64,000 nt of DNA from assembly GCA_026826555.1 (NCBI GenBank), contig JAKSZT010017954.1, positions 4,430,642 through 4,494,641 on the forward strand. The letters are read 5' to 3'. The notes below the pieces were generated by a model that did not search any database, was not told where the DNA came from, and was given only the letters and a program-made list of their open reading frames with translations. The DNA comes from Tolypeutes matacus (taxonomy: Eukaryota > Chordata > Mammalia > Cingulata > Chlamyphoridae). The stretch's first letter is position 1, and each line of letters starts with the position of its first letter. The position numbers and the translations under genes are program-made. Positions 25,501 through 60,157 of this stretch are shown here, piece after piece.

Positions 25501-25601
25501 TTTTTTTTTTTTTTTTTTTTTTCCAGGAGGTTCTGGGGATCGAACCTAGGTCCCTCCATATGGGAGACGGACGCCCAACCAGTTGAGCCACATCCGCCCC
25601 C
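25501..25601 (-). mobile_element. Short DAS-type SINE with perfect duplication
   Basis: An antisense SINE of about 101 bp whose tail reads as a long T-run at the left end, with box B ('gatcgaacctagg') and box A ('gttgagccacatccg') visible in reverse. The duplication ttctcaggttctt is perfect (13 bp) at 25488-25500 and 25602-25614. It closely resembles the copy at 5119-5222. Confidence 0.93.
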
Positions 25602-25614
25602 TTCTCAGGTTCTT

Positions 25615-26829: not shown

Positions 26830-27945
26830 TTTTATCTTTCTCCCCAAACCTGCTCCTTCTGCAGCCATTCTCATTTCAGCAAATGGCAGCCCCTGCCTTG
26901 CAGCTGCTCACTCTAAAAACCTTGGCGTTCTCCTTAACTACTCTCCTTCTCTTTGCATACTGCATCTGATCTCTCAGCAACACCAGTACTTGACTCTACC
27001 TTCCCCATCTATCCTGAATCCTGCCACTTCTCATTGACCCCACTACTACCACCTTCTTTTGCTTGGACTATTGCAATAGCCTCTTAACTACTTTATCTGT
27101 TTCTACCAAGGTCCCCCTACCTTCTATTTACAAAAAGCAGCCAGAGTGGGCTTACATGTTAAAATGTAAGTCAAGTCATGTCCTCAAAACTCTGCAAGGA
27201 CTCCCCCTTGAATCAGAGTCAAGCCAAAGTTTGTGCAATTGTCTAGTTCCTAAAGAATTTGGGGCCTTTTATCTCTCTGATTTCTTTTCCTGTGACTCTT
27301 TTCTTCACTTGCTCTGTTCTAGCCATATTAGCCTCTTCCATGTTTCTCGAATGTGACAGGAACAATGTATCTCAATGCCTTCCTGCTTGCTGTTTCCTCT
27401 GCTTGAAATTCCCTTTCTCCAGAAGCCAATGGTTTATTTCCTCAACATCTCTAGGTCTTTCCTCAAATATCACCTTCAGACTTTCCTTGAACACCCTATT
27501 TACAATTGCATCACCCCCATCAATCTTTATTGCCTTTTGCTGCTTTAGTTGTTTTTCTTTGTACCTTCTGACATACGATGTATTTTACTTATATGTTTTA
27601 TTTATTGTCTGTGTCTTTCCACTAGGATGTAAACTCCATGAAGGCAGGAGTTTTTTTTTTTTTAAAGATTTTATTTATTTATTCATTTATCCCCCCCTTG
27701 CTGCTTGTGCTCGCTGGGTCAGCCAACCACGCCGTGCGGGCGGGCTTGCCCTCACCAGGAGGCCCCGGGAACCGAACCCGGGGCCTCCCATATGGTAAAT
27801 GGGAGCCCTACTGATTGAGCCACAGCCGCTTCCCAGGAGTTTTTGTCTACTCTGTATTCTCAGCACCTAGATTAGTGCCTGGCACATAGTAGGTGCTAAA
27901 AAAGTTAGTTTGAATGGACAAATGAATGAATGAATGAATCTAGAA
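26830..27945 (+). mobile_element. Long L2 LINE copy with 3' end
   Basis: About 940 bp of L2 after removing the SINE. The coding-region words appear in consensus order: 'ttggactattgcaatagcc', 'agcagccagagtgggctt', 'tcaagtcatgtcctcaaaac', 'ctttcctcaaatatcacc'. The 3' end follows: 'gtaaactccatgaaggc', then after the SINE 'gtgcctggcacatagtagg' and an (AATG)n terminus near 27920-27940. A SINE splits it at 27656-27833. This is the best-preserved L2 here. Confidence 0.85.
27656..27833 (-). mobile_element. DAS-type SINE (long form) inside L2
   Basis: An antisense SINE of about 178 bp has its A-tail at the left, a middle segment 'ttgctgcttgtgctcgctg', then the tRNA region with 'ccgggaaccgaacccgg' and 'attgagccacagccgcttcc'. 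The duplication caggagttttt is present at 27645-27655 and 27834-27844. It has retained many CpGs and looks young. Confidence 0.92.
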
Positions 27946-29342: not shown

Positions 29343-30540
29343 CCTTTGTTTTTAAAGAAACTTTAGATTACATAAATGTTACATTGAAAATATAGAGGAT
29401 TCCCATATACCCCCTCCTCCCCCTCCCACACTTTCCCCCATTAACGACATCTTTCGTTAGTGTGGTATATTTGTTACAATTGATGAACACATTTTGAAGC
29501 TTTGCTACTACCCATGGTCTGCAGTTTACATTATGGTTTACCCTTTGCACTGTACAATTTTATAGGTTTTGACAAAATGTATAATGTATAATGTATAATG
29601 GCCTGTATCCGACTGAGAGGGGGCTTAGATCCCATGGGGCAGATGGATGGAACTGTCTTTCTTGCTGTTGTAGATGCTCATGTTTTTGGGATGGGCATTG
29701 TCCATCATCATCCTTTTGTTAGCTGTCTTGGGTGAGTCTGATGAACTGGAGAGTCGGTGTTGGCTGCAAGATTCAGGGCTCAACCAGCATATGAAGAGAC
29801 CAAAGATTTAAGTCTCTGGGACATATATATATAGTGGGTATAGTGCTAATTATAGGCTCAAATAAAAGGGGCAGAACAATGTGTAGGAAAATTATAAGTG
29901 AGTCTCCCTCTGTTGCATTGGGGAGATGGGTTAACATATATTCCAGGGAGGCGGCTGTGGCTCAATCAGTGGGGCTCCCGTTTACCATGTGGGAGGCCCT
30001 GGGTTCGGTTCCCGGGGCCTCTTGGTGAAGGCAGGCCCGCCCACGTGGTGTGGTTAGCTGACCCAGAGAGCACAAGCAGCAAGGGGGGGATGGATGAATG
30101 AATAAATAAAATCTTTGAAAAAAAACCAAAAAACAAAAAAACCCACATATATTCCAAGGTAAGGCCCTCAGACTTGGGTGCTGATTTCCTGGGGTTTTCT
30201 ACCCCCCCTATAGTGATTAGATGTCTCTAGAGCCCTCAGGAGCATCCCTGCTTGAGGCAATGTTTACTATGGCAGTTAGTGAGATCCTCCTGAGATGGGC
30301 ATAAGCATAACCTCTGGAATGACTACGTGACTCACTTTGAAATCTCATAGCCATAAAAACTCATTTGTATTTAATATTTCCTCCTTTTCGTCAAGGTTTT
30401 TTTCCAAATGCATCGCTGGTTGGCATTTAGTAGTAATCCCTTGTGCCAGGGAGGCCCATCCCAGGGAGTCATATCTCACACAGAGGTGGGGAGAGGGTAA
30501 GGCAGTGAGCTTATATGCTGGGTTTGGCTCCAAGGGCTCT
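29343..30540 (-). mobile_element. Lineage-specific L1 3' UTR (copy B), split by a SINE
   Basis: It shares with 23085-24305, in order, 'agtgtggtatatttgttac', 'gagagggggcttagatcc', 'gtcttgggtgagtctgatg', 'tgggcataagcataacctc' and 'gtgccagggaggcccatcc'. A small triplication of 'ataatgt' lies at about 29580-29597. A sense SINE interrupts it at 29946-30144. 5'-truncated, no ORF2 left. Confidence 0.8.
29946..30144 (+). mobile_element. DAS-type SINE (long form) inside an L1 3' UTR
   Basis: This is the only simple long-form copy on the + strand. It reads 'ggaggcggctgtggctcaa' (box A region), 'gggttcggttcccgggg' (box B region), a middle 'gagcacaagcagcaagg' and an A-rich tail to 30144. The duplication acatatattcca is perfect (12 bp) at 29934-29945 and 30145-30156. 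Confidence 0.94.
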
Positions 30541-39650: not shown

Positions 39651-39760
39651 GAATTTACCGGGGCCCTACCTTGTGCCAGGCTCTTGGCCTAGTGCTTTGC
39701 AACTTTCCTGTATTTAATCCTAGGAACCACTTTTTGAAGTGGGCACTATCATATTTATTT

Positions 39761-39940
39761 ATATTTTTTCTGTCTTTATTTATTTTAAAAATTTACTCCC
39801 CCCCTCCCCCAGATGGCTCTCTCCTCTGTCTGCTCATTGTTTGCTCGCCTTCTCCAGGAGGCACCAGGAACTGAACCTGGGACCTCCCACATGGGAGGTG
39901 GGTGCCCAAAGGCCTGAGCCACATCGGCTCCCCTCAGGCT
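39761..39940 (-). mobile_element. DAS-type SINE head and tail within the composite
   Basis: On the + strand 'gaactgaacctgggacctcc' (box B region) and 'ggcctgagccacatcggctc' (box A region) are in the usual antisense order, with 'tgtctgctcattgtttgctcg' style middle sequence (part 'gtctgctcattgtttg') and a T/A-rich tail at the left. Confidence 0.88.
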
Positions 39941-40107
39941 GTGGTGTCTGCTGGCCTGTGGCATCTGCTTGTTTAGGCGTCTGCTCGTTGTGGCGGGTGC
40001 AGCGCCTAGCTGTCATTGCGGTGGGTGTGGGTGTAACTCTCGTTGTAGCAGGGTGCAGGCCTCTTCTTGTCTTCTTTAGGAAGCACTGAGACATGGTGTC
40101 TCTGGGA

Positions 40108-40330
40108 TAGAGCTATGGTCAACACCACAGTGCCCATGAAGTAGAAGGTGCCAGGAAAGTCCCAGTGTGGGTGCAGCGTGTCGGCGGGGATGCCAGAGGC
40201 CAACGTGGCCTCGTAGTAGTAGTGCCGGAGGAAGGTATGCATGTCTGGCTCGGCCTCGCTGGGACTCTCAAGCGTGGAGAAGACGGTGGCGCCAGTTACC
40301 AGGTAGAGGCCAATGAGCGCTGCCAGCTCG
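40108..40330 (-). pseudogene. KCNK12 (THIK-2)-like partial retro-fragment
   Basis: The minus-strand frame from 40330 is open and encodes AALIGLYLVTGATVFSTLE, the first transmembrane helix of THIK two-pore potassium channels. SPSEAE follows, then FLRHYYYEA and HPHWDFPGTFYFMGTVV, the extracellular cap end and first pore helix. Compared with my memory of KCNK12, about 20 residues are missing between SEAE and FLRHY. Similarity stops at VLTI, just before the pore GFG, which is near where K2P genes commonly have an intron. It lacks a start, the selectivity filter, three helices and the C-terminus, so it cannot make a channel. Many CpGs survive ('gtgtcggcggggat', 'ctcggcctcgctgg'), which argues for recent origin. 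KCNK13 is a less likely source. Confidence 0.75.
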
Positions 40331-40479
40331 TATTTATTTTTGAGATTAAGAAACTAAGAGTTAGAGCCCAAGTGTACTCAGCTTTTGAAAATCAGAGGTG
40401 GGAGGGACACAGTCTAGGTCTGTCTGATGCTAAAGACTATGCTTTTGACCAGCCTTCTATGCATTTCTCCTCTAGCTTT

Positions 40480-44924: not shown

Positions 44925-45040
44925 TCTCAATTTCTTTGGTTTGTTTCTTCATCTTTAAAATAAAAATAATAATACCTGATCTATTTATCAATATTCTATC
45001 AGAGGATTAATTGAAATAATGAATGGGAAAGCAATCAGTA
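44925..45040 (+). mobile_element. MIR SINE fragment
   Basis: 'tttcttcatctttaaaat', 'aataatacctgatctattt' and 'gaggattaattgaaataatg' follow sense MIR. The block 44550-44920 before it holds nothing I recognise. Confidence 0.7.
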
Positions 45041-58284: not shown

Positions 58285-58986
58285 TGTGGCGGACTGAATT
58301 GTATACCCCAGTTTGGACACGTTCTTGTTTTTTTTTTAAAGATTTATTTTATTTATTTATTTATCCCCCCCTTGCTGCTTGTGCTCGCTGTGTCCATTTG
58401 CTGTGCATTTTTCTGTGTCTGCTTGTCTCTCTTTGTTGGGTCATCTTGCTGGGTCAGCTCACCATGCCGCATGGGCCGGCTTGCCTTCACCAGGAGGCCC
58501 TGGGAATTGAACCCAGGGCCTCCCATATGGTAAACGGGAGCCCAACCACTTGAGCCACATCCACTTCCCCGTTTTTGGTTTTGATCCGCGTTCCGGTGGG
58601 TATGAACCCGTGGTAAACAGCATCTCTTCAAGATGTGACTTCAGTTAAGGTGTGGCCTAACGGAATCAGGTTGGGCTTTAATCCAGATTACTGGGGTCTT
58701 TTATAAGCGAGTGAAAGTCAGACGGAGAGGGAAGTCACAGGGAACAGCCAGAAGCCAGAAGTCAACGGAACTCAGAAAAGAAAGGAGAAGATGCCACTAT
58801 TTGCATTGCCATGTGATGGAAAAGCCAAGGACCAAGGATCTCCAGCAGCCAGTTCCTGAATGCTACAGTCTTGCTGATGCCTCCATTTTGGACTTCTCCT
58901 AGCCTCAAAACCATGAGCCAACAACTTCCCATTGTTTAAGCCAACCCATTGTATGGTATGTGTTTTAGCAGCTAGGAACTAAAACA
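58285..58986 (+). mobile_element. Solo LTR, lineage-specific MaLR family (copy 5), split by a SINE
   Basis: Spans TG (58285) to 'ctaaaaca' (58986) with a perfect 5-bp duplication atatg at 58280-58284 and 58987-58991. Family words are 'gtgggtatgaacccgtgg', 'cttcagttaaggtgtggcc', 'aaaaccatgagccaacaac' and 'ttgtttaagccaaccc'. A SINE is inserted at 58328-58569, so the LTR proper is about 460 bp. Confidence 0.9.
58328..58569 (-). mobile_element. DAS-type SINE (long form) inside an LTR
   Basis: Antisense, about 240 bp. The tail is at the left, then the middle 'ttgctgcttgtgctcgctg', 'gcttgtctctctttgttggg' and 'gctcaccatgccgcatggg'. The tRNA region carries 'gggaattgaacccagggcc' and 'cacttgagccacatccac'. 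The flanks cgttcttg (58320-58327) and cgtttttg (58570-58577) are a near-perfect duplication. Compared with 27656-27833 it has an extra block of about 60 bp in the middle. Confidence 0.9.
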
Positions 58987-59334: not shown

Positions 59335-60157
59335 AGTGTACCACTGACACTCCTCTCTTTGAGGGGTGGGGTCTATACTCCCACTCCCCACTTGACTCTG
59401 GGTGACCTGTGACTATGGAAGACGTGCCACTATGTGACTTCTGATGTTGTCATAAAAAGTGATACAGGGAAGTGGTTGTGGCTCAAGCAATTGGGCTCTG
59501 TCTACCACATGGGAGGTCCAGGGTTCAATTCCTGGGGTCTCCTGGTGAAGGCAAGCTGGCCCACATGGTGAGCTGGCCCGAGCGGAGTGCTGGCCTGTGC
59601 AGGAGTGCTGGCCTGCACTGGAGTGCTGGCCCATGCAGAGAGCTGGTGCAGCAAGATGACGCAACAAAAAGAGACACAGAAGAGAGACAATGAGAGACAC
59701 AGCAGACCAGGGAGCTGAGGTGGTGCGGGAGGTTCAGCAGCCTCTCTTCCACTCCGCAGGGTCCCAGGATCAGTTCCTGGTACCACCTAAAGAGAAGACA
59801 AGCAGACACAGAAGAACACACAGCAGACAGCGAGTCCAAAACAATGGCGGGGGGGGATGGGGGGAATAAATAAATCTTTAAGAAAAAAAAAGTGATGCAG
59901 TACCCTCTTGGTCAGTTACACCAAGAAGCAAGGAAACAAGCACAGGACAGCAGCCCCAGCTGAGGTCCCAGCCAACAGCCCATCAACCGCCAGGCATGGA
60001 GTAAATGAGCCTTGAGAGTCCCCGGTTGAGGCCACGGAGATGAGCTGTCCTGGCTGAGTCCTGCCCAAATTGCAGGTCCGTGAGCAGAAGAAATGGTTTT
60101 TGTTTTAAGCTTCTAAGTTCTGGGATGGGTTATCATGCAGCAATAATGACTAGAACA
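59335..60157 (+). mobile_element. MLT1 LTR split by a dimeric SINE
   Basis: The left part has 'cttgactctgggtgacctg' and 'cgtgccactatgtgacttc'. The right part has 'ccagctgaggtcccagcc', 'caacagcccatcaaccgcc' and 'aagcttctaagttctggg', and ends 'tagaaca'. The order is diagnostic for MLT1. The SINE lies at 59468-59886. Confidence 0.85.
59468..59886 (+). mobile_element. Composite DAS-type SINE with internal tandem units and a second tRNA-like half
   Basis: The element starts 'gaagtggttgtggctcaagc', has box B 'gggttcaattcctgggg', then a tandem array (about 59570-59650) of degenerate units with 'agtgctggcctg' repeated three times. A second module (about 59700-59790) follows with 'gaggttcagcagcctctc' and 'ggatcagttcctggtacc', then 'gaagacaagcagacacag', a G-rich stretch and the A-tail. 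At about 419 bp it is roughly four times the short form. The duplications are aaaaagtgatacag (59454-59467) and aaaaagtgatgcag (59887-59900), with one mismatch. Confidence 0.9.

What the first reader, a model, noticed from the sequence alone, without database searches (positions are those of the whole stretch)
39761..40330. Chimera of a KCNK12-like exon fragment and a DAS SINE in one retro-insertion
Seen directly: a 570-bp insertion splits a MIR that is otherwise continuous, with the 9-bp repeat tatttattt at both ends. On the minus strand it reads channel-like coding sequence, then SINE-like sequence, then an A-rich tail, all in one orientation. The coding part shows M1 (AALIGLYLVTGATVFSTLE) and pore-helix (WDFPGTFYFMGTVV) segments of THIK-type K2P channels. 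Inference: during target-primed reverse transcription the L1 machinery switched from a SINE RNA to a KCNK12-derived RNA. SINE-led capture of a gene fragment could move exons if the composite is itself mobile.
Basis: partly seen in the sequence, partly recalled or inferred. Interest (0 to 1): 0.8.

Follow-up and report, generated by a model that had tools for sequence, protein, structure and literature searches.

The report
Retrocopied spliced KCNK12–SINE transcript
A fragment of a potassium-channel gene fused to a SINE was inserted here as the copy of one spliced RNA, in which the channel gene's first exon had been joined to a SINE lying in its own first intron; it is a fossil of an unusual transcript, not a gene fragment captured by the SINE during insertion.

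Summary
A 567-570 bp minus-strand insertion (39761 to 40327 or 40330) with a 9-bp exact (12-bp, one mismatch) target-site duplication splits a MIR-like sequence. It holds KCNK12 exon-1 sequence, a dimeric DAS-type SINE and an A-rich tail in one orientation. The proposed mechanism, reverse transcriptase switching from SINE RNA to KCNK12 RNA, does not hold. The window's own genome contains the likely source: KCNK12 intron 1 (48.1 kb) carries such a SINE on the same strand, with the same 20 nt of non-SINE sequence (18 of 20 identical) beside it. The exon part stops exactly at the exon-1 splice donor (ACCATAG|GTGAGC); the rest begins exactly after an intronic AG (CCTTTGGCCTAG|CTCTACCCC) and ends just past an AATAAA in the SINE tail. 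The template was most likely a cis-spliced, prematurely polyadenylated KCNK12 transcript with an exonised SINE as its last exon, 5'-truncated on insertion by LINE-1. A genome search with the channel part found only itself, so nothing suggests a mobile composite. It is a clear single case of a known kind (processed pseudogene of an alternative isoform; compare first-exon/LINE-1 and MAST2/SVA chimeras). Not shown: that the isoform was expressed, or did anything.

The parts
39749..39760 (.). Target-site duplication, copy beside the insertion's 3' (A-rich) end; exact 9 bp = 39752-39760
   Evidence: sequence
39761..39769 (-). Probable remnant of the poly(A) tail (sense AAAAAATAT)
   Evidence: the intron-1 source continues AGTGAAGG after CAG instead
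39770..39774 (-). Last bases of the alternative exon (sense GACAG; source GTCAG), where the match to the source ends
39775..39784 (-). Two overlapping AATAAA poly(A) signals in the SINE tail (sense AATAAATAAA)
   Evidence: the source has one AATAAA, AATAAAGTCAG, followed by G/T-rich DNA
39785..39936 (-). Right unit of the dimeric DAS-type SINE (tRNA-like head, body, start of tail)
39937..40092 (-). Body of the left SINE unit (with 16-bp repeats; its head is missing)
40093..40112 (-). 5' end of the alternative exon: KCNK12 intron-1 sequence lying upstream of the SINE (sense CTCTATCCCAGAGACACCAT; source CTCTACCCCGGAGACACCAT, 18 of 20)
   Evidence: no match other than the window itself extends past query position 332 (=40092)
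40113..40327 (-). KCNK12 exon-1 fragment from M1 to the splice donor (ends GTGTTGACCATAG); 20-codon deletion and 2-codon TAC insertion; 5'-truncated. The end is 40330 if only the exact 9-bp TSD is counted.
40328..40339 (.). Target-site duplication, copy beside the insertion's 5' end; exact 9 bp = 40331-40339

Best explanation
This is a 5'-truncated processed pseudogene of an alternative KCNK12 transcript. In the source gene a DAS-type SINE lies in intron 1 in sense orientation. RNA polymerase II transcribed KCNK12. The exon-1 donor was spliced to a weak acceptor about 20 nt upstream of the SINE, and the RNA was cleaved and polyadenylated just after the SINE's AATAAA-bearing tail. LINE-1 proteins then reverse-transcribed this two-exon RNA by target-primed reverse transcription into a MIR, losing its 5' end. 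Shown by sequence: single insertion with TSD, exact donor/acceptor join, SINE with the same 20-nt neighbour in intron 1 on the same strand, 3' end at the SINE tail. Inferred: expression of the isoform in the germline, LINE-1 as the enzyme, and the order of events. I see no sign that the copy has a function.
For: KCNK12 in the window's genome: G000:C4459, + strand; exon 2 by its GFGMTTPATVGG start and by coding for residues 325-402 at 94%. The exon-1 3' end reads TGTGGTGTCGACCATAG|GTGAGCGG and the insertion reads TGTGGTGTTGACCATAG|CTCTATCCC: 16 of 17 identical up to the donor, the one change being C/T in a CpG. Of the 13 proteins, 11 run on as STIGE..., which is what G|GTGAG gives when read through, and 2 are gene models with other sequence there; at least 109 of the 133 proteins held run on as STIGFGM(T/S)TP. 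The rest of the insertion matches intron 1 at C4459:39914734-39915044, same strand: 268 of 348 columns identical, 38 columns being gaps, E 8e-76 within the fetched 120 kb; over the alternative exon alone 306 ungapped sites with 42 differences. The match starts right after an AG (GGCCTAG|CTCTACCCC), includes the 20-nt non-SINE piece (18 of 20), and ends at AATAAAGTCAG, before AGTGAAGGTCTGTCTGTGTTTTTAG (70% G/T over 40 nt). A spliced model scores 136.5 against the insertion, an unspliced one 30. TSD and MIR continuity.
Against: Within the SINE proper the intron copy does not stand out: it is about as similar to the insertion as other genome copies (80-90%), and of the 12 non-majority bases it shares with the insertion (0 to 4 for each of 7 other copies) only 3 lie in the SINE or its 3' end, the other 9 in or at the edge of the 20-nt piece, where the other copies are aligned to their heads. 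It also lacks part of the repeat-rich body (a gap of about 27 columns). The acceptor is weak: 59% pyrimidines (exon 2: 76%), another AG within 20 nt upstream, and 1269 of 3525 intron-1 AG sites do as well or better in pyrimidines (136 of them also pass three further simple tests, one of which this site fails). AATAAA is common in the intron (52) and lies only 5-9 nt from the supposed cleavage point. The nick site (plus strand TATTT^TTGA) is a poor LINE-1 endonuclease site. Most of exon 1 reads N in the genome record, so the exon part could be compared as DNA only over its last 17 nt. No RNA data; no sister-species empty site. The 20-nt piece was not searched genome-wide (pattern search did not complete).
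Confidence: 0.96

Rival explanations
1. Template switching during target-primed reverse transcription: LINE-1 reverse transcriptase copied part of a free SINE RNA and then jumped to a KCNK12 RNA.
For: Such jumps are one of two mechanisms named for U6/LINE-1 chimeras (PMC13174262, introduction read). The SINE part lacks its 5' head, as a jump from within the SINE would give, and within the SINE proper many genome copies fit about as well as the intron copy.
Against: The jump would have to land by chance on the last base of exon 1, leave the SINE RNA at a position that follows an intronic AG, and use a SINE that happens to lie in KCNK12 intron 1 on the same strand and brings 20 nt of that intron with it. 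Law and Burns, for their MAP3K13 case, likewise do not favour switching given a splice junction (section 13 read).
Confidence: 0.01
2. Trans-splicing or end-to-end joining: exon 1 of KCNK12 was spliced in trans to a SINE-bearing RNA from another locus, or a free exon-1 splicing intermediate was copied after the SINE RNA.
For: Law and Burns propose trans-splicing for their mRNA/LINE-1 chimeras, 15 of 17 of whose genes have no intronic LINE-1 (sections 13 and 20 read).
Against: Here the partner lies in the same intron, same strand, 30,163 nt downstream of exon 1, so cis-splicing suffices.
Confidence: 0.02
3. Two separate insertions at one place: a KCNK12 retrocopy and a SINE.
For: SINEs often nest (general knowledge).
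Against: One TSD pair encloses both parts, the parts share one orientation with the A-rich tail at one end, and the order and join equal those of the spliced source.
Confidence: 0.005
4. The insertion is a domesticated exon or a retrogene that makes a K2P fragment.
For: The 115-aa frame has no stop and both indels against KCNK12 keep frame.
Against: The frame begins in the MIR, its first ATG lies after M1, there is no selectivity filter, and 17 of 69 aligned residues differ although the 13 exon-1 proteins are nearly identical to each other there.
Confidence: 0.02

Closest known systems
Processed pseudogenes (retrocopies) made by LINE-1, here of an alternative isoform
   Same: Intron removed at a donor/acceptor pair, A-rich tail, TSD, 5' truncation, decayed coding sequence
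   Different: The template is a two-exon, prematurely ended isoform whose last exon is a SINE, not the full mRNA
First-exon/LINE-1 chimeric insertions (Law and Burns 2026, PMC13174262; abstract, outline, sections 6, 13, 20 and passages read)
   Same: First exon(s) fused in sense to a retroelement in one insertion, in 6 of 17 cases ending at a splice donor, before a long intron (median 48 kb there; 48.1 kb here)
   Different: Partner is a tRNA-derived SINE and its source lies in cis in the intron; 15 of their 17 genes have no intronic LINE-1. Here the exon part has lost its 5' end
SVA_F1 (MAST2 exon 1) and chimpanzee pt_SVA_D6 (STK40 exon 1) (PMC6139936; passages read)
   Same: A GC-rich first exon spliced to a non-LTR element
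   Different: Those composites became families of 84 and 94 copies; here a genome search with the channel part found only itself
TE-borne intronic polyadenylation isoforms, e.g. L2-derived IL18R1-Short (PMC13232192, preprint; abstract and outline read)
   Same: A retroelement in an intron ends the transcript early and truncates the protein
   Different: Here the evidence is a genomic fossil, with no expression data
3'UTR-embedded Alu/B1 as helpers of pseudogene formation (PMC5199112; abstract and outline read)
   Same: A SINE at the 3' end of the retroposed RNA
   Different: DAS is tRNA-derived (recalled; tRNA-like), not 7SL-derived; that abstract reports no such link for other retroelements, and no help is shown here

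Membership tests
LINE-1-mediated processed pseudogene | Target-site duplication around the whole insertion | tested here: met
   9 bp exact, 11 of 12 extended
LINE-1-mediated processed pseudogene | Intron precisely removed | tested here: met
   ACCATAG|GTGAGC and TTGGCCTAG|CTCTAC joined as ACCATAG|CTCTAT
LINE-1-mediated processed pseudogene | 3' poly(A) tail not encoded at the source | tested here: met
   AAAAAATAT after CAG in the insertion; source continues AGTGAAGG. Short and decayed, so a modest test
LINE-1-mediated processed pseudogene | Endonuclease site like TTTT/AA | tested here: not met
   TATTT^TTGA by reading the empty site; a poor match. The LINE-1 label therefore rests on TSD, tail and 5' truncation
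LINE-1-mediated processed pseudogene | Empty site in a relative | not testable with these tools
   The genome search gives no relatives for this genome; MIR alignment is a substitute
DAS-type SINE (Xenarthra) | tRNA-like head with promoter boxes, repeated through the genome | tested here: met
ARAGORN other SINE heads of the window tRNA-Gly (not the focal one); 39 other genome places match (lower bound).
Template-switch chimera | Junction unrelated to splice sites; partner RNAs from unrelated loci | tested here: not met
   Exact splice junction, partner in the same intron
Mobile composite family (SVA_F1-like) | Many copies sharing the gene-SINE junction | tested here: not met
   Query 40093-40330: 1 candidate, 1 match, itself; the tool warns that it skips very common words

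The most novel reading that the evidence does not exclude
The SINE did more than sit in the RNA: by supplying the poly(A) signal, and perhaps by drawing LINE-1 proteins to the RNA as proposed for Alu in 3' ends, it made retroposable a gene for which one search found no other retrocopy in this genome. The same exonised SINE once gave (or still gives) a truncated KCNK12 isoform: M1 and the first pore helix, no selectivity filter, and a tail of 70 residues, mostly SINE-coded, if today's intron sequence is read.
Probability: 0.15. Interest if true: 0.5.

Novelty: new member of a known kind. Interest (0 to 1): 0.3.

Why it matters
It shows how easily a spliced transcript ending in an exonised SINE can be mistaken for reverse-transcriptase template switching, and which test separates them: look in the parent gene's introns and at the splice sites. 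It is also a roughly datable fossil of an intronic-polyadenylation isoform: the insertion and the intron copy differ by 0.154 substitutions per site (K2P, 306 sites), very roughly 35 million years at a recalled rate of 2.2e-9 per site per year, probably less as the sequence is CpG-rich. For the wider idea that SINEs move exons it is a negative case.

Tried and rejected
Linker as a left SINE unit by in-window copies only: alignments did not beat shuffles for 7 of 8 references (217, 72, 428, 474 and 171 of 500 shuffles as good; 244 and 66 of 300); for the eighth 13 of 300 were as good, and that match lay in the copy's flank, not its SINE. It was settled only when the genome was searched. Protein search with the linker/SINE frame: no candidate. 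KCNK12 relatives in viral contigs and genome contigs: 16 and 414 pattern matches, none confirmed. SINE-head pattern in viral contigs: 3 hits, not examined. Template switching, two insertions, trans-splicing: see rivals. Papers: in the 7 papers listed for KCNK12+exon+pseudogene no title or abstract start mentions a KCNK12 pseudogene (listing only). Three searches on chimeric or SINE-ended retrocopies listed 20 of 43, 12 of 13 and 12 of 13 papers; I opened three of those (PMC13174262, first seen, PMC5199112, PMC13232192). Searches served other points. None of this proves absence from print.

Full report
What is there. On the minus strand, between two copies of a short direct repeat (39749-39760 and 40328-40339, 11 of 12 identical, 9 exact), the window reads 215 nt of channel-like coding sequence, 20 nt of unplaced sequence, a SINE of a little over 300 nt and a short A-rich tail. 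Removing the insertion and one repeat copy leaves a MIR-like sequence that aligns without a break to other places in the window (37 nt at 78%, E 0.004, at 44940-44976; and 20048-19905, nhmmer E 0.0041). A profile built from the window's own matches, the focal flanks included, fits 20047-19906 right across the junction; that is supportive rather than independent.

The coding part is KCNK12. The 115-aa frame matches KCNK13 structures (E 1.4e-13) and, better, KCNK12 exon-1 proteins (13 of 16 candidates, best E 3.2e-22). Against named KCNK12 proteins 52 of 69 aligned residues are identical (score 235); against two mammalian KCNK13 the scores are 155 and 161. It begins in M1 and stops after the TI of GTVVSTI. 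There is one 20-residue deletion and one 2-residue insertion (a TAC repeat). Pfam's Ion_trans_2 match is below its cut-off, as expected of a fragment without the filter.

Where it stops. In 11 of the 13 proteins the chain runs on as STIG-E..., which is what G|GTGAG, a splice donor, gives when read through; the other 2 are gene models with other sequence there. At least 109 of the 133 proteins held run on as STIGFGM(T/S)TP. So the channel part ends at the exon-1 boundary, which already argued for splicing.

The SINE. In the window's own genome (3.6 Gb, 5002 contigs) 39 other places match parts of 39762-40092 at 80-90% (69 matching pieces in all; a lower bound, 40 of 3742 candidates scored). Seven of these 39 were aligned in full: they are dimers with a left head, a repeat-rich body and a right unit. 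The focal insertion lacks the left head. No other copy goes past query position 332 (40092), so the 20 nt between SINE and exon 1 are not SINE in those copies. With in-window copies alone this could not be shown.

The source. A protein search of the genome gave 12 matches from 35 scored candidates: the window copy (72%), KCNK12 exon 2 at C4459, + strand (91%), a 62% match that I take for KCNK13, and nine weaker ones at 32-47%, one of which (37%) covers the exon-1 region. None of these looks like another KCNK12 retrocopy. KCNK12's own exon 1 was not matched, presumably because most of it reads N. I fetched 120 kb around the gene. The exon-1 donor reads TGTGGTGTCGACCATAG|GTGAGCGG; exon 2 starts after CTCCACAG; intron 1 is 48,119 nt. 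In intron 1, on the same strand, 30,163 nt after exon 1 and 17,649 nt before exon 2, lies a stretch that matches the insertion from the junction to the tail: 268 of 348 columns identical, 38 gap columns, E 8e-76. It was not in the list, which scored only 40 candidates. The insertion reads TGTGGTGTTGACCATAG|CTCTATCCCAGAGACACCAT; the intron reads CCTTTGGCCTAG|CTCTACCCCGGAGACACCAT (18 of 20). The only difference in the 17 exon bases is C/T in a CpG. A spliced model aligns with score 136.5, the unspliced one with 30.

How good is this particular SINE? Within the SINE proper it is not closer to the insertion than other copies are. The insertion shares 12 non-majority bases with it and 0 to 4 with each of 7 other copies, but 9 of the 12 lie in or at the edge of the 20-nt piece and 3 in the SINE or its 3' end. 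The case for it rests on the 20-nt piece, the place in KCNK12 intron 1, the strand, the two exact splice borders and the shared 3' end.

The 3' end. The source carries AATAAAGTCAG followed by AGTGAAGGTCTGTCTGTGTTTTTAG, 70% G/T over 40 nt. The insertion carries AATAAATAAAGACAG and then AAAAAATAT and the TSD. So the RNA ended just after the SINE tail, at a place that looks like a cleavage site, though the signal is close to it (5-9 nt) and AATAAA occurs 52 times in this intron.

How it arose. KCNK12 was transcribed, its exon-1 donor was joined to a weak acceptor beside the intronic SINE, and the RNA was polyadenylated at the SINE's tail. LINE-1 proteins copied it into a MIR; the 5' end was lost. 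Splicing, orientation, source and ends are read from sequence. Expression, enzyme and timing are inferred. The acceptor is not strong (59% pyrimidines against 76% at exon 2, an AG within 20 nt upstream; 1269 of 3525 intron AG sites do as well in pyrimidines), which fits a minor isoform. The nick site is not a good LINE-1 endonuclease site.

Against template switching. A switch would have to reproduce by chance an exact exon end, an exact position after AG, a SINE from the same gene and strand, and 20 nt of that intron. Law and Burns describe 17 mRNA or lncRNA/LINE-1 chimeras, of which 6 end at splice donors; in the MAP3K13 case they do not favour switching given the splice junction. Their genes have unusually long downstream introns (median 48 kb), and 15 of the 17 have no intronic LINE-1, hence their trans-splicing model (sections 6, 13, 20 read). 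Here the element is in cis.

Is it mobile or useful? A search with 40093-40330 found only itself (1 candidate). By contrast MAST2/SVA_F1 and STK40/pt_SVA_D6 reached 84 and 94 copies (passages read). The frame is open but starts in the MIR, lacks the filter and differs in 17 of 69 residues, where the 13 proteins are nearly identical to each other; I read it as a decayed copy. The two in-frame indels are a mild counter-sign (1 in 9 by chance).

Novelty. The parts are each known: retrocopies, TE-borne early polyadenylation (IL18R1-Short, abstract read), SINEs at the 3' ends of retroposed RNAs (abstract read), first exons spliced to retroelements. The combination with a tRNA-derived SINE acting in cis is a neat single case. 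Most of exon 1 reads N in the genome record, no relative is held and no RNA was seen; these are the limits.

Noticed in passing
59452-59850 (+): A dimeric SINE with two tRNA-like units at 59462-59555 and 59705-59797, flanked by AAAAAGTGATACAG / AAAAAGTGATGCAG, an apparent target-site duplication.
   Followed up: partly
25519-25609, 27744-27841, 29939-30036, 58479-58576: ARAGORN calls these four SINE heads tRNA-Gly genes; automatic tRNA annotation of this genome could be inflated by SINEs.
   Followed up: partly
27744-27841 (-): Another SINE that splits what looks like a MIR, flanked by AAAACTCCTG repeats.
   Followed up: no
KCNK12 gene models P0003 and P0012: In gene models of two monkeys (Pygathrix nigripes, Nasalis larvatus) exon 1 of KCNK12 continues into other sequence than exon 2, which may be prediction error or other alternative exons.
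   Followed up: no
40113-40327: The 20-codon deletion lies between EAE and VAE of KCNK12, which suggests slippage between short repeats; it could not be checked as DNA.
   Followed up: no
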